Shown: positions 111-61,202 of the stretch, one piece after another
How positions within the stretch are numbered: position 1 is the stretch's first letter
How the letters are laid out: every line of letters starts with the position of its first letter
Assembly (NCBI RefSeq): GCF_040183065.1
Contig: NC_091117.1
Span: forward strand, 110,859,001 to 110,923,000
Reading direction: 5' to 3'
Origin: Periplaneta americana
Lineage: Eukaryota; Arthropoda; Insecta; Blattodea; Blattidae
DNA length: 64,000 nucleotides
Notes under the pieces: model-generated
The model's input: only the letters and a program-made list of their open reading frames with translations
The model's database searches: none
Told to the model about the DNA's origin: nothing
Made by a program: the position numbers and the translations under genes

Positions 111-560
111 CAATAATAGATCAATAGTCTTCAAATTTCTTAAAATACTTGTCCAAGAAAGTATCATTTCTAAAAGAGGAAGATAAAAATGTCTTACTGC
201 TCGTGGATGAAATCCATTTAATAGCTCAATTTGATTACAAGAGTGGGAATATAATATTTGTCAGGCAGAAGGAAATTCACAGTTTTTATGATACGAAGTT
301 TGGACGCAAATAATAATCTGGCATGTTGCAACTATAAAAACTGTACATTTGTAGTATTTGTTTGGAAGGGGTATTATTTTAAAGCTGGAGAAGATAGATT
401 TCCAGGTTTTTGACATGCTATAAACAGAAATGCTGTTTCATTATTTCGTAATGCCCCAATAGCAATGTTACAGAGCGACCCCTGTACTTTATTTTTGACA
501 GTGTACTTATTTTAAAGTATGTCAGAAATAACTGGCTGAACCAAACAGATCGTCCAGATC
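110..560 (+). pseudogene. P-element-like (THAP9-type) transposase fragment
   Basis: The + strand reads with a few breaks as the start of the RNase H-like catalytic region of P-superfamily transposases. The motif LLLVDEIHL followed by FDYKSGNI (about 195-260) is the conserved strand that carries the first catalytic aspartate in the P-element/THAP9 family. Further on, weaker matches run to about 500 and end in a stretch equivalent to NPCTLF. The same segment occurs in reverse orientation at 29100-29600, where the reading is similar and also broken. No THAP domain is present here because the window begins downstream of it. Stops after about 310 show that it is not functional. Confidence 0.6.
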
Positions 561-1423
561 TAGGATTAGGGTTCGCTAATATACCACATTAATTTTGTAA
601 TTGTTTTACTTTTCTTGCTAAATAATTAGAAACTCCAAATTATTTTTCAATTGTCGACTAAGTTAGTCCTACGTTTTGCAAGAATCGTCAGTATTTGAAT
701 CTTATTTCTTTTTTTTCTCTCTCTCTCACTGTTTGTGACACTACTTTGAAATTTATCTTTAAGCTGGCGTATAATTTCAGATTCTGAATTTTTTTCACAA
801 ATTAATTCTGTGTATGTTTATCACACAGACTGTCTATACTTCCAAGCTTTCACAATTTGTACTCTACACTTAACAAATTGGAGGTACTAATTTATTATTT
901 TACAGGTGGTCAATTAGTCACTGGCTATGAGTGATTAATAAATATGACTGGTCTTTATAATTTGTACTGTGATTGGTCATAATAAGAATGCATGTTACTG
1001 GCTAGTTTAAGTTCATAGCATGTTACTGGCTAATTGAAGTTTATAGTTTAATGTGGTTGCTGGTAATAAGAAGATATGTTATTGGTTTGATGAGAGATAT
1101 GATTTGTTAGTGATTACATCGTATGTGCAAAAACATATACAGGCTATGTGAACGGGTTATTTGAGAAACCCCTCATGTCCATTTTTTTTTTTTCAAAATT
1201 GAGATACTGATTATATAATATCTTTAGGGGTCGATACATCGTTTTATGGAGAAACCCCTCAAGTTTAGTCATTCTTGTAGCATGTAGAGCCTGTTGAAAA
1301 ATGTATATATTTGAGAAACCCCTCAAGTACAGGACATGAGGGTTTTCTCAATTACATCACTTCCAGTGATTTTTGAATAGCTTTGAAAATATTTAATATT
1401 TATATGTTGGTAATGTTAAAAAG

Positions 1424-28989: not shown

Positions 28990-31050
28990 AATTGTCTTCT
29001 AGGGCATGAAGGACTTTAAGAGCAGCAAAAGAAGCCTCTCATTCTCTGCAGCTATATCATCACAGAAACATTTAAATCTAATAACCTGATCTGTTTGGTT
29101 CAGCCAGTTATTTCTGACATAATTCACTTTAAAATAAGTAGACCTACACTGCCAAAAATAAAGTACAGGGGTTGCTCTGTGAGACTGCTATTGGGGCATT
29201 ACTAAATAATGAAACAGTATTTCTGTTTATAGCATTGTTAACTGAGACAATGTCAAAAAAGTGGAAATCTATCTCCTCCAGCTTTAAAATAATACCGCTT
29301 CCAAACAAATACAAATGTTCGGCTTTTATGGTTGCACCACGCAAGATATGTGCTACATCTAAATAACTTGTGTCCAAACTTTGTGCCATAAAAACTGTGA
29401 ATTTCCTTCTGCCTGACCAACTATTATATTCCCACTCTTGTATTCAAACTGGGCTTTTAAATGGATTTCATCCACGAGCAGTAAGACAATTTTATCTTCG
29501 TCTTTTAGAAATTATACTTTCTTGGGCAAATAATTTAAGAAATTTGAAGACTGTTGATCTATTATTGTATATGTGGAAAAATTGTTGCAGACCCTACTTA
29601 ATGTAATTTCAAAAGGCAACATTAAACCTGATTTTCTTCTTATGTATCTGTAACAATGTAGCCTATGCATACAGATTGTACCAGTGACCAGAAAAACCAT
29701 TAACTTCCATGAATATCTCATGCTGACTTCTTACAATTTAACAGAGAAACTTGTTGAACTATAAAAATAGCAAACTAATTGACTCTTTTCCTGGCAGATC
29801 GATACACAAACTGTTTAGCAAGTGTTGAATCAATTCCAGTTTGTCAGTAACTGCATATTGTCAGTTTTTAAATCTAACACTAATTTCATTCACTATAGTG
29901 TTTAACTTACATATGTCACTCACCATGACTGGAAGAGTTGCATTGTCTATCCTTCTTACTTGTATATCTTTCACATGCACTATAACTAATCACTATTAAT
30001 AACTACATAATAGGCTACAGTATTCTGGGTAAGGAACTTCACAAATTAACAACAAACACACAGAGGTATCTTTCGTCATTAGTACCCAATCACTGTCCAA
30101 TTTCGATTTAGAAGTAAGTTCATCTAAAGAATTAAATATCATTTCCATTTGTTTATTATACGCAGATAAACTCTCCTCCATTGAACCTTTAAGGCGATTG
30201 TATTGTAGACGTTCCCTACGATCAATAGGATTCTCCCTGGATGATGATGCTTCACAAAGATATGAAGGACAGTCAGGAAGTTTTGAAGGCAAGTATCTGA
30301 AATAAATTTTACATATGAAAACTATTTCAGATTATGGTGAAGATTTTATGTAATTCTTATTTAATTATATTTTATAGAATGGAAGCAAAATAAACAATAA
30401 AAAAAAGCGACGTGTCTTATTGGTGTTGAGGTCATAACCTCAAACCTGGAGCAAAATAATAATTCTGAGTCTTTCAGGATGTCAACAAGTCGCAGTACTG
30501 TATTAACAAATTACACTAGTGTATAGGAAGCTATTACAGCTTATGTAGCCTAACTAATTTTCCTCTACAAATTGCAACTTACCTTTCTTAAGACGGGGAT
30601 GTTACATTTATTGTTCATAATCTCCCAGTCTTCGAATCACACACTGATGCTTCTCTTTCAATATTCTGGGTTTCAAAATGTAACTCGCATACCTGCGAAA
30701 CAAATTAATACTCATTAGTTTTTGTTTCTCAAGTTAAGTTTTACAACATAGGCTACATATCAGTTGATGTTACATAACCTCTTATTCAAATTCTACTAAA
30801 TACTTAGGCCTACCTCACATTTGAGACTAAAATTATCCCGATGCATCTCCCTGATATATTTCCAGCGTAAATCTTCATCCTTAGGGAATAAAATTGACTG
30901 ACAAAATTATCCCGATGCATCACCCTGATGTATTTCCGGCGTAAATCTTCATCCTTAGGGAATAAAAATACACTCACTTTCGAACCAGTTAAATAATTGC
31001 CTTTACAAGCAGGTACGCAACATTTACGTGGCCCAATATTTTGTATATTC
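28990..31050 (-). pseudogene. P-element-like transposase with THAP exons, broken
   Basis: Minus strand, in order. A THAP exon at about 31040-30825 (KCCVPACKGNY, SVFLFPKDEDLRRKY, MHRDNF) supplies the first zinc cysteines; its end carries a 74-bp tandem duplication that shifts the frame just before a GTAGGC donor (about 30811-30816). A second exon from 30693 (VCELHFE) supplies the last Cys and His after a TTTCGCAG acceptor. A third at 30297-29996 reads KLPDCPSYLCEASSSREN. Then come YIRRKSGLMLPFEITLSR (about 29640) and the RNase H-like domain with VDEIHLK (about 29495-29475), FEYKSGNI, and a tail to about 29150. This is the THAP plus P-superfamily layout. Stops and a missing start (ATT where ATG is expected) show it is dead. 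Confidence 0.6.
30829..30976. repeat. 74-bp tandem duplication
   Basis: AAAATTATCCCGATGCATC begins at 30829 and again at 30903; the two copies differ at a few positions. Because 74 is not a multiple of three, the repeat shifts the THAP exon frame. Confidence 0.85.
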
Positions 31051-52789: not shown

Positions 52790-53272
52790 CATACATAAGT
52801 GTTCTGCCCATGCGCAGGTCTTTCACTGCAAACCCAGCATTCTACAATCTTTCCTATTTTCTGCCTTCCTCTTAGTCTCCGCATATAATCCACATATCTT
52901 AATGTCGTCTATAATCTGCTATCTTCTTCTACCCCGAACTCTTCTCCCGTTCACCATTTCTTCCAGTGCATTCTCCAGTAGACAGTTTCTTCTCAGCCAG
53001 TGACCCAACAAATTCCTTTTTCTCTTTCGGATCAGTTTCAGCATCATTCTTTCTCCACCCAGTCTTACCAACACAACTTCTTTTCTTATTCTGTCTGTCC
53101 ACTTCACACGGTCCATTCTTCTCCATATCCATATTTAAAATGCTTCTATTCTTTTCTCTTTATTTAGTTGTAATGTCTATGTTTCTGCCCTATACAATGC
53201 CACACTCCACACAAAGCATTTCACTAGTTCACTTCCTTAGTTCTTTTTCCAAAGGCCAATATAGCTTAACAA
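52790..53272 (-). pseudogene. RTE-like LINE C-terminal fragment
   Basis: The minus strand encodes RVKWTDRIRKEVVLVRLGGE then RMMLKLIRKRKRNLLGHWLR and ENALEEMVNGRRVRGRRR, continuing in broken form to a CxxC-type end. It is the same LINE family as in the two TA-flanked elements (21058-21405, 23882-24400) but keeps the middle segment that those copies lost. It is truncated at its 5' side at about 53272. Confidence 0.75.
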
Positions 53273-53462
53273 CCTTACACCCTCCATGTTGACGCCGGCA
53301 CAGACAACAACTGAGAACCTGAAAGCAGACTTGGTCAATAGTAATACCATGGATAAATATATAATAGGATGCGAAACTCACTGAGTTTCCCGTAACACAT
53401 ACTAGAGGCGCTGTTGTAGAATTGATCGTGCTGCCATCTATATGCGGTTAGAGGCGTTATTA

Positions 53463-53579
53463 CATCTAGCAGCGCACCAAGTAGCGACAAGTGTAACTAC
53501 TCCGTACATCCAGCAGCGCACCCAAGTAGCGAAAATAATAACTAATTACTCCGCGTATCTAGCAGCGCGCCTGGCGGCG
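53463..53579 (+). repeat. Three subterminal repeats
   Basis: ATCTAGCAGCGCACCAAGTA (from 53464), ATCCAGCAGCGCACCCAAGT (from 53508) and ATCTAGCAGCGCGCCTGG (from 53557) form three spaced copies with periods of about 44 and 49 bases; the preceding ACTCCG also repeats. AGAGGCG words nearby (53404, 53450) may be further sites. Arrays like this near transposon ends are often binding sites for the transposase or its partner; that role is inference. Confidence 0.65.
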
Positions 53580-53969
53580 AAAAGTTGAACAATATGCAGT
53601 AAATATTCCTCCTCCCCCCCGCCCCAAACCCTCAATTTAAAGTAAAACTTTAAAATTTTTATTCCTCACATCATCTTTCACTGAAAATTGTTATTGGAGC
53701 CAATAGTTGGAAGAGACGGTCTATTTTACACTACCTTATAATGTAACTAATTAAAATACAGCCAAACAGGGACAGAAAATAAAAGAAAACAAGGTTAGAT
53801 AATTGGGATTTTATTCTTTAGGTAATAGTGTATAGTGCACTTTAAGTCTGCAAAAACTAGTTACATAATTGAAATTACTATATTACTGTATACTATTTTA
53901 CAATACATTCAACAACACAATTTTGACAAGGTCCATCATATCACTGTTTAACATACACTACATGTGCAC

Positions 53970-54411
53970 TAGGGTTACCAGATTGTAAAAATTTAAAAGC
54001 AGGTCATTTTAAATGAAAAAGAATTTTCCATATAAAAGCAGGGCATAATAGACTAACTTGATACTTGACGTGACGTCTTTTTACATTCTGTTATATAATT
54101 AGGTAATTTGTTTGTCTTTGTACAATAAAACTGATACAAAACTATTATCATGAATAGAATTGAAGTATACGGATTCTAAATTAGCTTTTACCTTATTTAA
54201 TTTTCGGATTGTTAATACTTCTCTGGTGACTCGACTTGTTTGAGCAAGGATTCTACAAACATAATTCCTCTAATGGACCCCAACTTAATAGTTACTCTCT
54301 TTTGTCCATTGGGAATTGGCAAGAAAGAAAAGCAGGACAATTTCTGATTTTTACGAACCCTGGCAGGATGCAGGACATGTCAAGCGAAATCCAGAACATC
54401 TGGTAATCCTA
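53970..54411. mobile_element. MITE inside the THAP transposon
   Basis: TAGGGTTACCAGATTGT at the left is matched in inverse at the right (ACATCTGGTAATCCTA). Both inner flanks carry a GCAGG word (AAAGCAGG and its counterpart). The unit of about 442 bases has no ORF and would be a later insertion into the larger transposon. Confidence 0.6.
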
Positions 54412-55341
54412 TACACACAGATACACTTACATATTTAGTGTGCAGTACATTGGTAAAGTCTATACAACAAATTGAATAATTGAAATTGTGGGGCCCAGTC
54501 GGATAAGAGAAAAAGCCACATCTATATATTTATATTTTGGAATGCTCTGCCATCTGTGCTCGTTTACAGATGTAAATGATACCATTTGAATAATGTGTTG
54601 TCATATAGTTTAGTCAGAACATATTTCTTCACATTCCAATGAGATATCCTACGTATCGAAATTTATGGTTTGTCCCCTTGTCTGCCTGGACCCATCAACT
54701 ATTGGTTAGTCAACTGTCCAAAAACAGGTTTGGACCCTACAAGTAACACTCATGGGACAATCAGAGCAGGAGGTAATGAGTAAGAGTGGCCAATTCCTTT
54801 CTCCCCTCCGTTGCATACATCGCTGACTAGATACATATTACATTAATCGGATTTCAGATACTACAAAAAAATGTTTGATAATTGAAACTGTCATATTACT
54901 ATCTACTATTTTGCAACACATTTTAGAACACTTTTCTAGGATCACATCTAAGGTTCTTAGACATTGTTGTTTGGCATACACATAACGGTAACATATACCA
55001 AAATGTTGTATGTACTGAAGGTCAGAGTGAAATACATGAGCTGCATCACTTACTTGCATTATGTTGGGCAAAAAAGTTTACTAGGTGAACTGAAGGTATG
55101 TTAACCCCCAACTTCCAAAGTCAAATATCTCTCTTACATACGCACACATGTACCACATACTGTAACTTTGCTCCCTATAATTACACAATATATTTAACAT
55201 TTGCTAAAAACATTTTTTTCTGGGGCAAAAAAATAAATAAAAATAAAAAAAAATAATAAAAAAAAGCTATGAACTTTCCACCACTTTCCAATATGATATT
55301 ATACCTTTTTGTTACACACAATATGAGCTATTTACACTACT

Positions 55342-57602
55342 TTAAAGACACTGCAATTTTTTCTCCAGTCTCTTCACCTTTGCTTTCAGAGCTGCCATTT
55401 TTAGTTTGTTGCTCCTGGGTGAAGATGAGAAGTGAGGACTCGAGAAAAGTTTTCGTTTTGCAACACCAGGACCTAAAGATTACGAAATTAACTTCAGATT
55501 AATCTAATTGCTGGGAACTATTTTAAATAAAAAATGAAACGTGACAACACCTTTAGCCTTGTTAAGTTAATGTAGGCCTAACAAAAGGCATGCAAGCTAT
55601 GGATAGGCTATGTAACATACTACAAAATTGACAATACATCAAAATGTGATCAATATTTACCAAGTTTGGAAGGAGGTGTAGCTGAAGCTGAAGGAAACTG
55701 TTCCATCTTGGATGTATTCATGTCAGTATCTAAGGAAATAAATGATAAATTGAAGCAAGAATTGAACAGACTTTGTGCTCCATTCATTTCAAACTGCTCT
55801 TAACTGTACAAATTATAACTCATATAAATGTTAAGTAATAGTAACAATCCAAAAGTTTAATGCTGCAACAAATTTGATTGTGTTAATCTGAATTGTTCGT
55901 TGTAATGTAATATAAAATATTTTTTTGCTAATAGGCTGGGCTATAGAGGACAACTGACACTAACAGAAAGGGATAATCAGCAGAGGTGTTGGGATATTAA
56001 AGAGAAGTCAGTAAGAGGGAATGATAGTGTACTTCGTGTGCCAGGGAGACTTGTCAGGATATCAGTTGCAATATCGATCGTCTGGTTCAAAAGTGCGACA
56101 ACACAAAAAAACAAGTTTTGAGATATCTTCAGTTGAAAGTTTCAAATAAATCCCCTAAAAAGGGACAGAGTTGTGGTTCATAACCACGACAATTAGAATC
56201 GAGTCAGTATTCAGGACGAGTATATCACGATCTTCCAGTTCATTATTAATAGATTTCGAAATGTAGTAATAATGAATTAATAAAGTCCATAGTTATAATT
56301 ACTTCTAAAGCAGTTTATTTCGTTTTTATTCTTTTTGGTTGTAAATATGACTTATCTCAATATTGAATCGGAAAGAGCTCCGAAAGGGGCTTTCAGTAGT
56401 ATAAATAACTAAAAAATGGCAATTTTTGAGTTGTCACACTTTTGAACTGGACGATCAATATATAACAAGATAAACACCCTGCCCTGTAGTTAAGAGGATT
56501 TGTTATTATTCGCTACTGTAAAAGAATGAAGTATGAAAACTGCAGACATATGGCAGGGGGCAATTAACTTAAATGATTACTAGCATGTTACCAGGCTCAC
56601 AAGACAGTATCGCTTACCTTCAGCTGTGGGAACCACATTGAATAGGAGCGATGGTTGCTGATAGCCCCTCAGCTGTTCACCAATCATACTGTTCCCTGTA
56701 ATAATCACAAGAAAAACGAAACATAATTAATTATGTATTTTGAAACATGTAATGTAAGAACAGCTGATGAGAAACTAAGGCATTCCTTGAAATCCATAAA
56801 CTTGACTAAGTGGAATAATTACCTTGTTGGCATGCATCTTTATTCATCCCGGCATATGCCGTCGAAGCAGTAATCTTTGAAGCTGGATTACTCATAGGAG
56901 CAGGAATTGTTTGAGGCATAGCTGCCAAGCCTGCAGCCTACTCAGTTGCAGCTTGTAAACCTATGAGACTACGCGTACCTGAAAATAAAGAAAAGAGTAA
57001 TGAAATCGGAAATTTTAAACATGAATGACATAAAAACATTGCTAGTGTACTAATTACCTTCAGCAGCTGCAGAATCAATCTTCGCCCTCCTAGCATACGT
57101 CCGCAAAGTCTTGTGATGCCTGAAAGTTGGGGTAGACCCCGGTGATAAGGTCGCTCGAGGCATAGCTGGGCTAGATGGTGGGCTCCGGATTTTAGGGTTT
57201 GATGGCACCACTAATCCATTAGCATGAACAGTGGGCACTGCAGTTTGTTTAAGTATCACTTTTTGTGAAGAGCTATAATAGTCAGACTCAATGAAGTGGT
57301 CCATGCAGATTCTCAACCTGTGTGTGGCATCTGCGGTAACTCGATACCGGTCCTCTAGCCCACAAAATCGGAGCCACTTCCAACACCTAAAGCAATGGAT
57401 TACAATTACTAATGAGATAAAGTAGAAGAAATATTGAATAGAAATCATGCAAAAATTGGGGAAAAAAATAATAAGTTATCTGCTGCATTTGTGTTATTTT
57501 AAGAGATGTCTAATGCGCATCACTAGGTGGTGAGTGACCATAGGAAAACTGGTAGCAGCAACAGATATTGGGTACGAACTAAATTAAATATTAGGCCTAA
57601 GC

Positions 57603-57660
<58 letters not shown>

Positions 57661-58141
57661 TACACATGATTGAGAATTTCTCCAGAATGGCTAACTACAT
57701 CAAAGAAGGCATAATTTTATTTTCCATAACTGTGAGATGTTTATACTAAAAACCACGTGGCTTTAGTTTGCAGCCATGTGGCCTAATGCTACAATTCAGG
57801 TTTACGAGGTTTCATTTTCAGCCTTCTTGCTCTTTTTCGTCAATATTTCACATTTCGTTACAGTTTGACTGAATTTCGGAACCATCTAAATTTATACTCC
57901 TACTATAATCCTAAATAAATTAGCAGAAAGCAAAGCACAGCTCGTCTAACCTACTTCACCAAAAAGTACATTGTTTTCAAGTGTAAGGTTTAGGCTACAC
58001 AGGACACAATAATAATACTAAAGCTTACCTCATAGGTTCCTGAGGAAAATAGAAAAAATGCTTCCCTCCCACAGTATTAACAGTCTTGCATCCAGGCGCT
58101 GAGCATCTTCCTCGAATCTTTTGCATTTTTCTGGAATCCAT
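55342..58141 (-). CDS. Six-exon THAP-domain protein gene
   Basis: Minus-strand exons by GT-AG rules: 58141-58029, 57386-57058, 56978-56823, 56695-56618, 55729-55661 and 55472-55342. They total 876 bases, exactly 292 codons with the TAA. Intron 1 is phase 2; the other four are phase 1. Exons 1 and 2 form an N-terminal THAP zinc finger of C2CH type, about 75 residues: RCSAPGC (residues 12-18), FFYFP, RCWKWLRFCG, ICMDHF with the last Cys and His, and AVPTV, the family's closing motif. THAP domains bind DNA in a sequence-specific way. The middle is Ser/Pro-rich and likely unstructured, and the C-terminus (LKAKVKRLEKKLQCL) is a short coiled coil, likely for dimerisation. There is no DDE domain. 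An in-frame TAG occurs in exon 3 about 14 codons in. The start has no competing in-frame ATG upstream. Expression is untested. Confidence 0.75.
56073..56458. mobile_element. MITE in intron 4 of the THAP gene
   Basis: ATCGTCTGGTTCAAAAGTGC followed by GACAAC at the left is matched in inverse at the right (TTGTCACACTTTTGAACTGG, then ACGAT). The flanks share CAATAT. About 385 bases, without ORF. It lies between exons 4 and 5 and does not touch a splice site. Confidence 0.7.
57604..57659. repeat. TTA microsatellite in intron 1
   Basis: About 18 TTA units in the 642-base first intron of the THAP gene. Confidence 0.95.
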
Positions 58142-58306
58142 CTTGCCTTCATAACGCTGTTGGCTAGTCATCGGCCAACGTTCTGACTACTTCGTATCGG
58201 AGAGTGGAGAACGCTGGTCCTCACGTAGTTCTATGATTTACCACCTACGACGTCGGGCGCTGATCACCTTATTTCAGAATACCGCATCTAGATCGTGCTG
58301 TCCGCA
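58142..58306 (-). promoter_or_regulatory. Putative promoter/leader of the THAP gene
   Basis: Only 165 bases separate the start codon from the right inverted end, so any promoter of the gene lies here or in the terminal repeat. The stretch is less A+T-rich than its surroundings and has no clear TATA box in the leader itself, though the inverted end contains TATATAATA. This is position-based inference. Confidence 0.3.
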
Positions 58307-61202
58307 GTTTCGCATCCTATTATATATTTATCCATGGTAATACTTTCGCACTGCAGGTAGCCCATTTAAATGCCCAAAGCTTAATACCACCTATCACAAA
58401 ATACTTTCCATCTTCGCTCCTTTGAACATCCACGCTATCCTTATTTCTGAAACAAGGTTAAAACCTTCCCTCTCCTCCTCCCTAGTGGATTTACCTGGCT
58501 ACGTTCTTTGTCGAAATGACAGAGTTAAAAAAGGGGAGGCGATTGTGCTGTCTATGTGCGTTCAGACCTGCAACCAAAAGTTTTACGCCAGTCAACCTAA
58601 CCAATATGCAGCTCGTCCCGAATTTATGTTTATAGAAATTTGCGCTTCCTATCAGAAGTGTTTAATCAGTGTAGTATACAAGCCCCCAGACGTAATATGT
58701 CGACGGAGTTTGAAACCATATTATTGGATTTATCACCACATATGAACACTTTCTAATCTTGGGAGATTTCAATACTAACTTGCTAGCCACTGAGTCGCCC
58801 GCGACTCGAGAAATTCTGACAATGTTCGAATCGTATAATATGACCATTTTACCACTTTTACCCACGCATCACACTGCAACATCCGAGACGTTACTAGACC
58901 TGATTATTACTAAGAACACGGACAGGGTACTGTCATACGGACAATCACCTGCACCAGGCATATCAGCTCATGACATCATTTACCTAACATATTCACTACA
59001 ATGCCCTAAAATGAAGCTAAAAACAATAACATTCCGCGACTTGAAACGCATTGACGAGACTAGTTTCTATGAGGATGCTGTGCAACTGCCCTGGCACACG
59101 ATCTGGACTGCACGCTCAGTGGATGACAAAGTGGACATTCTTAACGGACTTATTGTGTCACTGTACGACAAACACGCTCCACGGAAAACTAAACGTGTTA
59201 AAAGGTGCCCGGCACCATGGATGACAACTAAGATAAAAGACCTGATGACCGACAGGGATGCCGCTTATAGAAAATATAGACGGGATAAAACTGATGACAA
59301 CCTACGAAATTACAAACGACTAAGAAATATGACGAATCAAGAAATACGAAATACCACACTGAAATATATGCACGGACTAATTGAGTCAAATGTGAAGACT
59401 GGGGACATGTGGAAAAATATTAACTCTATGGGATTTGGAAATACAAAAGGACAGACACAGCAAATCAGCATCTCATTAGAACGCCTCAATGAACATTTCA
59501 CTGCTCCACCAACTAACAGTACTGACCATAACAAACAGCGACAGACAATGGCAGAACCTCAGGTAGTTGACCTACTCAGAGACAGATTTTACTTTTCATA
59601 CGTTACACCTGTTGACGTGAAGAAAGCTCTTAAACGCAACAAATCCAAGCGACAGGTTCTGAAGACATTAGTAACGCAATGATAAACAAAGTTATTGACG
59701 TAATCTTACCAACACTGACACACATTTTCAACGCTTCGCTGACGACATCCATTTTTCCTAAAGCTTGGAAAAATGCCTTTGTGCGCCCTATACCCAAAGT
59801 TAAAACGCCGACTACCCCCAATGACTATCGACCTATTAGTATTCTACCTACCTTATCGAAGGCGTTAGAGAGGATAGTACACAGACATCTCATTGACTAC
59901 CTAAACAGTTATGAATTCTTGGACACATATCAATCAGATTTCAGGACTCGACACAGTACAGCGACTGCACTGTTGGAAGTAACGGAAGACATCCCAAAAG
60001 CTATGGACTAACGTAAAATTACAATATTGACACTACTAGACTTCAGTAAAGCGTTTGACACTGTAAATATCGACTTACTGACGACAAAATTACGATCACT
60101 CCAACTATCAGAAAGCACAGTTTCTTGGTTCTCCTCTTATCTCAGCGAACGTCAGCAGTGTGTTTCCATTGGAAGTCAAACTTCCTCATGGAGTATCGTT
60201 GATTCTGGAATCCCATAGGGATCTGTTCTATCACCACTACTATTCACTATTTACGTGAATGACATCCCTAAGATTTTACAGCACTGTAAGCACCAGCTTT
60301 ACGCAGACGATTTACAAATCTATATCCATACAACCCCTGACTCACTCAATGACGCAATACTCAATCTTAACGAGGACCTTGAATCTATATCTGCGTGGGC
60401 CAGAAAGTTTGGTTTGACTCTCAATGCAAGAAAATCACAAGCAATCCTAGTGGGACATCAACGTCTATTATGCAACATTACTCCTGCTCTCACAGTCAAG
60501 ATAAACGACACAATAATCCCTTTTGCTTCCTGTGTTAAAAACCTTGAAGTTTACTTTCATACGCACTTAAACTGGAATAACCAAGTAACCCATATTACCA
60601 AAAAAGTGCTTTCCATACTACATTCCTTAAACAGCGTTCAAAAATTCCTCCCGCTATCACTCAAGAAAATACTAGTGGAAACACAAGTAATGCCCCACTT
60701 CGATTATTGTGATTTTCTACTGACTGACCTCAATGTCAACCAGTCGCAAAGATTACAACCTGTTCATAATTCTTGTGTTCGCATCGTCTGCGATGTCTGT
60801 CGCGCTGACCACATTACCCCATTCTTCCAAACTCTAAACTGGCTACGGCTTAACGAACGTAGAAATTTTCATTTTCTAGTTCCCCTTTTCCAATTCCTTC
60901 ACACCTCTAAACCTACCTACCTTGCCTCCCGTTTCAGTTACTTGTCATCATATCATATCTCTTCACTCGCACGCAAAATAGCCACATACTAACCACACCA
61001 ACACATAAGACATCATCGTATTCATCATACACAATCTCGCTCTCGCGCTTGTAGAATACCCTACCCAGTGACATCAGAGACTGTCGGAATTTAGTAGCGT
61101 TAAAAAGCAAACTTATTAAGCATTTTCTTACTGCGTAGAGTAGGTTCACTTTTTACTTAAGTAATAAAAAAATTTTCTCTTTTCTTAACTTTCACAATAA
61201 AT

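What the first reader, a model, noticed from the sequence alone, without database searches (positions are those of the whole stretch)
53347..58337. A 5-kb DNA transposon whose only visible gene is a THAP protein without a DDE domain
The sequence shows perfect 31-bp inverted ends, TAATA on both sides, and a spliced six-exon THAP gene inside. Known THAP-bearing superfamilies (P, Kolobok, ISL2EU) pair THAP with a catalytic domain and make other target duplications. Either this is a non-autonomous derivative that carries a THAP end-binding or repressor protein, or it has captured a host THAP gene, or the catalytic subunit is encoded in a partner element. I find no named family that fits.
Basis: partly seen in the sequence, partly recalled or inferred. 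Interest (0 to 1): 0.88.

Follow-up and report, generated by a model that had tools for sequence, protein, structure and literature searches.

The report
Crippled cockroach P-element transposon
This is a damaged, cut-down copy of a P-type jumping gene in a cockroach-like genome: it kept the ends and the DNA-binding half of its enzyme but lost the cutting half, much as shortened P elements do in fruit flies.

Summary
An unnamed protein, P0036, carries a second copy of the left end, cut off exactly at the CATG border; P0037 looks like its uninterrupted counterpart.

It is not family-less. The P. americana protein P0019 matches the window's protein over 273 of 275 residues, then continues into a P-transposase helix-turn-helix and RNase H domain. 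GTAATAC fits Galileo's GTANTAC, and the flanks fit the motif of Drosophila P and 1360, all P superfamily; P0036's flank does not fit GTANTAC. So this is a non-autonomous P-superfamily element whose catalytic segment is gone.

The six-exon gene is weaker than stated: it avoids an in-frame stop (56938-56940) by an acceptor seen in none of six relatives covering the segment. At the conserved acceptor the product ends after 160 residues, without the coiled coil. It is most likely a transposase-dependent passenger; a KP-like repressor role is possible but weakened. Full copies could not be compared, because the own-genome search did not complete. New member of a known kind, modest interest.

The parts
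53341..53347 (.). left target-site duplication GTAATAC
   Evidence: only k=7 of 1-11 gives identical flanks
53348..53378 (+). left 31-bp terminal inverted repeat, begins CATGG
53348..53437 (.). outer 90 bp of the left end, found again in translation in protein P0036 (24 aa at 92%, then 6 aa at 100% in a neighbouring frame), where it stops at the CATG border
53461..53571 (.). three subterminal direct repeats (18 nt; 94% and 78% to the reference copy) at 53461, 53505 and 53554; function unknown, THAP-binding sites are a guess
   Evidence: families D4, D5 and D7
54354..54407 (-). 18-aa stretch identical to the last exon of P. americana P0019; may be a dispersed repeat rather than P sequence
   Evidence: 100% over 18 aa, E 3e-6; inverted pair 53970-53983/54398-54411
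55342..55472 (-). exon 6: start of the coiled coil, ends ...KRLEKKLQCL stop; P0019 continues here into the helix-turn-helix and RNase H domains
55661..55729 (-). exon 5 (linker)
56071..56461 (.). MITE-like hairpin nested in the intron between exons 4 and 5
   Evidence: I2, 39 nt, 87%; fold z -5.4
56618..56695 (-). exon 4 (linker)
57058..57386 (-). exon 2: second part of the THAP domain (C-x2-H, AVPT) and linker
58029..58141 (-). exon 1: start codon and first part of the THAP domain (C-x4-C)
58306..58336 (-). right 31-bp terminal inverted repeat
58337..58343 (.). right target-site duplication GTAATAC

Best explanation
A non-autonomous P-superfamily DNA transposon in the genome of Periplaneta americana or a very near relative. 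It descends from a fuller element that encoded THAP, coiled coil, helix-turn-helix and a split RNase H/GTP-binding transposase. The part from the end of the coiled coil through the catalytic domain is missing. Shown: ends, flanking duplication, a second copy of the left end, THAP-to-coiled-coil homology with P-transposase-like proteins, no catalytic sequence found. Inferred: the copy arrived when a P transposase from another copy bound its ends and moved it by cut and paste; it depends on such copies in trans; its own mRNA now mostly makes a 160-aa THAP-only product or is degraded.
For: Protein search: 8 of 8 hits are named Periplaneta americana. P0019 (601 aa) is identical at 264 of 289 alignment columns over window residues 1-273, then carries Pfam HTH PF12017 (E 1.4e-8) and TNP-like RNase H PF21787 (E 6.7e-14). 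P0044 (P. americana, 623 aa; no THAP in the model) shares linker and coiled coil and has RNase H and GTP-binding models. P0028 aligns to the solved Drosophila P transposase 6p5a at E 1.2e-40 with D153, D243 and E474 opposite D230, D303 and E531 (residues named in PMC7776569). P0028 and P0044 are sisters in a 24-row tree (95/90). GTAATAC fits Galileo's GTANTAC (PMC4168063). The flanks ATAGT...ACTTT fit ANAGT/ACTNT of P and 1360 (PMC3276498); that combined 13-base motif occurs 0 times in the window and once in the joined empty site. The 31-bp ends equal those of Drosophila P in length. Second left end: P0036 matches the outer left end (22 of 24 residues, E 2e-12) up to CATG, then runs into a retroelement-like protein that P0037 carries uninterrupted. 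No catalytic piece among 252 open pieces of the element (best E 0.05, the coiled-coil exon), while 5 of 6 pieces of the control P0019 scored E 2e-7 or better (E for 6 pieces; P0019 is not in the model but its relative P0044 is).
Against: No DNA of any other copy was seen, so it is not shown that a catalytic copy has these same ends. P0036's flank (C-N-C-A-R-G-T read outward, from its codons) does not fit GTANTAC, so the target preference rests on one insertion. Of the six closest P. americana models only P0008, P0019 and P0044 show catalytic parts; P0001, P0004 and P0006 do not. P0019 has Gly at the first Asp and the Glu positions, and P0008, P0019 and P0044 all lack the second-Asp exon, so a working transposase in this species is not shown. 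The 11-12-bp subterminal inverted repeats of Drosophila P and zebrafish Pdre2 were looked for as shared 9-mers in the outer 400 bp and not found.
Confidence: 0.9

Rival explanations
1. KP-like repressor element: the deletion left a THAP plus coiled-coil protein that dimerises on P ends and blocks transposase, and the element spreads or is kept because of it.
For: Domain plan THAP + linker + coiled coil without catalysis; small Drosophila P elements can encode repressors such as the 207-aa KP protein (PMC7776569 passages). With the alternative acceptor the frame is open for 275 aa.
Against: At the conserved acceptor exon 3 has a stop, leaving 160 aa without the coiled coil; the alternative acceptor (tgcaactgagtaggctgcag) lacks a pyrimidine tract (read from the sequence). 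No expression data.
Confidence: 0.15
2. Host THAP gene captured by an unrelated DNA transposon.
For: The copy has no catalytic domain, and diverged P. americana THAP proteins with acidic tails (P0002, P0003, P0005; 54-67% identical) also lack one.
Against: P0019, identical at 264 of 289 columns, fuses the same exons to a P HTH and RNase H region; the duplication and flanks at this site are P-type.
Confidence: 0.04
3. THAP-bearing element of another superfamily (Kolobok, ISL2EU).
Against: The duplication is neither TTAA nor a 2-bp TA (both recalled as their hallmarks); relatives carry P-type HTH, RNase H and GTP-binding models.
Confidence: 0.01
4. Intact autonomous P element whose catalytic exons were overlooked.
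For: The element is 5 kb, longer than Drosophila P (2.9 kb) and within the 4.2-7.5 kb of autonomous Anopheles P elements (PMC1562414 passages).
Against: tblastn of 86 proteins against the window and an HMM from 23 P transposases against 252 open pieces of 15 aa or more in the element found no HTH, RNase H or GTP-binding piece.
Confidence: 0.01

Closest known systems
Drosophila P element and its KP derivative (P superfamily)
   Same: THAP gene read by splicing, 31-bp perfect ends, P-type catalytic domain in relatives, shortened copies that can encode only the N-terminal half
   Different: 8-bp duplication in P against 7 here; no 11-bp subterminal inverted repeat found; 5 kb; stop in exon 3; no repression shown
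Galileo (P superfamily, Drosophila)
   Same: 7-bp duplication, consensus GTANTAC (PMC4168063), fitted by this insertion
   Different: Galileo has long, internally repetitive inverted ends (PMC3688188), here 31 bp; the flank of the second copy, P0036, does not fit GTANTAC
1360/Hoppel (P superfamily, Drosophila)
   Same: 7-bp duplication and ANAGT/ACTNT flanks (PMC3276498)
   Different: consensus GTTNAAC there; ends and protein not compared here
P. americana P transposase-like genes P0019, P0044, P0008
   Same: same linker/coiled-coil protein, in P0019 also the THAP domain (264/289 identical columns)
   Different: continue into RNase H (P0019 also HTH); their DNA ends are unseen

Membership tests
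P superfamily | THAP domain at the N-terminus of the encoded protein | tested here: met
   PF05485 E 5.7e-15, residues 13-92
P superfamily | P-type HTH/RNase H/GTP-binding transposase in the element or its close relatives | tested here: met
   not found in this copy; HTH and RNase H in P0019, RNase H and GTP-binding in P0044, all in P0028
P superfamily | DDE triad | tested here: inconclusive
   complete in P0028; P0044 has D and E, second-D exon not in the model; P0019 has Gly at D1 and E; none in this copy
P superfamily | 7- or 8-bp target duplication | tested here: met
   GTAATAC, 7 bp; CATG border supported by a second copy; literature
P superfamily | palindromic target motif ANAGT..ACTNT (P, 1360) or GTANTAC (Galileo) | tested here: inconclusive
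   met at this insertion; the flank of P0036, read from its codons, does not fit GTANTAC
P superfamily | terminal inverted repeats beginning CA | tested here: met
   CATGG...; Pdre2 CATACC... (PMC10983969); the Drosophila P end is recalled
P superfamily | subterminal inverted repeats of 11-12 bp (described for Drosophila P and Pdre2; not taken as superfamily-defining) | tested here: not met
   no shared 9-mer between the outer 400 bp in inverted orientation beyond the ends
P superfamily | same ends at other loci, empty sites | tested here: inconclusive
   one further left end in P0036 and an uninterrupted counterpart P0037, both only as proteins from unnamed contigs; full copies not testable: own-genome search unanswered 14 times; 0 matches in viral and prokaryote collections
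KP-type repressor element | THAP plus dimerisation region, catalytic domain deleted | tested here: inconclusive
   met for the 275-aa reading, not met for the conserved splice form of 160 aa
KP-type repressor element | represses transposition | not testable with these tools
   needs an assay
Galileo | 7-bp GTANTAC duplication | tested here: met
   (this insertion)
Galileo | long internally repetitive inverted ends | tested here: not met
   identity stops at 31 bp
Kolobok | TTAA duplication (recalled) | tested here: not met

The most novel reading that the evidence does not exclude
A cockroach P lineage joins Drosophila-P-like 31-bp ends with a 7-bp duplication and at least sometimes a Galileo-like GTANTAC target, and part of it exists as THAP-only copies that act in trans as end-binding regulators. 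One splice acceptor decides whether the regulator has its dimerisation domain. (Odds lowered from 0.10 to 0.07 on checking, because the flank of the second copy, P0036, does not fit GTANTAC.)
Probability: 0.07. Interest if true: 0.5.

Novelty: new member of a known kind. Interest (0 to 1): 0.27.

Why it matters
It removes a supposed orphan transposon class and adds a cockroach P lineage. If more copies show 7-bp GTANTAC sites, the Galileo-type target would be older than flies and not tied to long ends; the one further flank seen does not support this. On prior description: two literature searches gave 0 papers. Of 34 papers holding 3 of 4 terms, 15 were listed and none is by title about a cockroach P element. 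None of 6 others is either. The held library lacks most subscription journals, and public records already name such P. americana genes 'Transposable element P transposase'.

Tried and rejected
A search for the 25-base end gave 0 matches in viral contigs and 0 in prokaryote contigs, which is uninformative for an insect element. The own-genome search did not complete. Of the 35 rows, three carry a P-transposase Pfam domain (P0008, P0019, P0028) and only these were used as P evidence. P0009, P0010, P0012, P0013 and P0014, printed, match P0008's non-P, retroelement-like tail; most other rows were not examined one by one. P0019's last exon matching 54354-54407 was considered as proof that the 3' part is P sequence. 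It was not relied on, because that stretch lies at one arm of an inverted pair and may be a dispersed repeat. The joined flanks match no other uninterrupted copy in the window across the junction. The solved structures found (THAP domain-containing proteins 1 and 2 and one hypothetical protein; 4 rows, E 0.0024-0.9) say only that the fold is THAP. In one search my filter by lower coordinate filed the P0036 match under 'elsewhere'; the check brought it back (42 of 160 rows overlap the element; outside the exons only P0036 and P0019's 18 aa).
Full report
What is there. The window carries a transposon at 53348-58336 (4,989 bp). Its two ends are identical over exactly 31 bp in inverted orientation and then diverge. 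A 29-bp part of the end was found at these two places only (up to 3 mismatches allowed; shuffle mean 0.00). Outside the ends stands GTAATAC on both sides. Of lengths 1 to 11 only 7 gives a direct repeat for an element beginning CATGG.

A second end. Protein P0036 (195 aa, unnamed 1.3-kb contig) holds the left end in translation: 24 residues at 92% (E 2e-12) covering element bases 73 to 2, preceded by 6 residues at 100% in a neighbouring frame for bases 90 to 73. The match stops with His (CAT); the next residue is Ala (GCN). So after CATG this copy has C where the window has G, and base 53347 belongs to the flank: the border is CATG and the 5-bp reading falls (inference from codons). What follows, VLGFCHHGELLRINRHN..., is uninterrupted in P0037 as ...ETLPHVLGFCHHGELLRINRHN..., so the pair looks like a filled and an empty copy of one retroelement-like gene. 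Read outward, P0036's flank is C-N-C-A-R-G-T-N, which does not fit GTANTAC. Its organism is unknown, and only one side is seen.

The gene. On the minus strand six exons with GT/AG borders give 275 aa, with one Pfam family above its cut-off, THAP. Exon 3 normally starts further upstream, at 56978: P0001, P0002, P0004, P0008, P0019 and P0044, six of six relatives that carry the LQAA segment, read ...SLIGLQAA[TN]EQAAGL. In P0001, P0002 and P0019 it follows exon 2 directly; P0004 reads in from the intron; P0008 and P0044 come from other upstream sequence. The more diverged P0003, P0005 and P0007 lack the LQAA string and were not aligned here. In the window that frame meets TAG at 56938-56940, where the six have glutamine, giving 160 aa. 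The 275-aa protein exists only if a downstream acceptor without a pyrimidine tract is used. The THAP domain (residues 13-92) is untouched in both forms.

What family. All 8 of 8 proteins found with the window's protein are named Periplaneta americana, so the window is from that species or a very near one (inference). P0019 is identical at 264 of 289 alignment columns over window residues 1-273, the gap being the skipped start of exon 3. It then continues where the window stops: HTH PF12017 and TNP-like RNase H PF21787. P0044 has the same linker and coiled coil up to ...KRLEK, another frame for a stretch, then RNase H and GTP-binding parts; its model has no THAP. P0008 has the linker, then an RNase H piece (E 7.5e-11). 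P0001, P0004 and P0006 show no catalytic part. P0028, from an unnamed 2.2-kb contig, has HTH, RNase H, GTP-binding and C-terminal RNase H models and aligns to the solved Drosophila P transposase at E 1.2e-40, with its three acids opposite D230, D303 and E531 (residues named in PMC7776569, passages). In a tree of 24 P transposases P0028 and P0044 are sisters (95/90) and P0072 is next to them (100/100).

Target site. Published P-superfamily target sites: P 8 bp, 1360 7 bp, both with ANAGT/ACTNT flanks (PMC3276498, passages); Galileo 7 bp, GTANTAC (PMC4168063, passages); Anopheles P elements 8 bp, ends of 27-31 bp, 4.2-7.5 kb (PMC1562414, passages). The window's site is AATAGTAATACTTTC, which fits GTANTAC and ANAGT/ACTNT together. 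The pattern ANAGTANTACTNT is absent from the 64-kb window and appears once in the joined flanks. GTANTAC alone occurs 8 times in the window.

No catalytic domain in this copy. tblastn of 86 proteins against the window (E up to 0.01) gave 42 rows overlapping the element: THAP, linker and coiled-coil exons, one 18-aa stretch at 54354-54407 shared with P0019's last exon, and P0036's left end. An HMM of 23 P transposases against 252 open pieces of 15 aa or more gave nothing better than E 0.05, which was the coiled-coil exon itself. Of 6 control pieces of P0019, 5 scored 2e-7 or better and one 0.11 (E for 6 pieces). The window's frame leaves P0019's right after ...KRLEKKLQ, so one deletion border lies next to 55351; the other is unknown.

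How it works. Most likely it moved as a passenger: a P transposase from another copy bound the ends and pasted the element in (mechanism of Drosophila P, PMC7776569, passages). Whether the leftover THAP protein does anything is open. Small Drosophila P elements can encode repressors such as the 207-aa KP protein, but the stop in exon 3 argues that this copy's main product lacks the coiled coil. The three subterminal repeats (53461-53571) lie 113-224 bp from the left end; Galileo's first THAP site is about 70 bp in (PMC3688188, passages), so their role is a guess.

Against this reading. No second copy's DNA was seen. A working cockroach transposase was not seen: P0019 has Gly at two of the three catalytic positions, and the second-Asp exon is missing from P0008, P0019 and P0044. 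The subterminal inverted repeats of Drosophila P are not found. The GTANTAC fit is one case, and P0036 does not share it.

Verdict. An ordinary kind of thing, well preserved at its ends: a defective P-superfamily element of a cockroach. New member of a known kind.

Noticed in passing
window 128-310 (+), 452-589 (+): Relic of a diverged P-type transposase (TNP-like RNase H N-terminal; local HMM E 8e-5 and 0.5; Pfam PF21787 E 0.004 for 128-310, below its cut-off; no Pfam match for 452-589).
   Followed up: partly
window 29362-29730 (-), with a THAP-like stretch near 30924-31025 (-): Second relic of what looks like the same diverged P lineage as 128-589; tblastn with an Ischnura elegans P transposase E 1.6e-5, Pfam PF21787 E 0.034 for 29362-29511, below its cut-off; the THAP-like match is weak (P0003, E 0.5).
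   Followed up: partly
window 56071-56461: MITE-like hairpin nested in the intron between exons 4 and 5 (39-nt arms, 87%; DNA fold z -5.4).
   Followed up: partly
P0002, P0003, P0005 (P. americana proteins): THAP proteins 54-67% identical to the element's, with long acidic tails in place of the catalytic domain; possible domesticated P-derived THAP genes.
   Followed up: no
P0019 (P. americana protein): P-transposase-like gene with THAP and RNase H but Gly at the first Asp and the Glu of the triad.
   Followed up: no
window 58344-59682 (+) and 52800-53159 (-): Flanks of the element are retroelement-like: an LNAQSL...ISETR endonuclease-like start with a frame shift on the right (family recalled), and on the left a minus-strand stretch also found at 21-24 kb.
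   Followed up: partly
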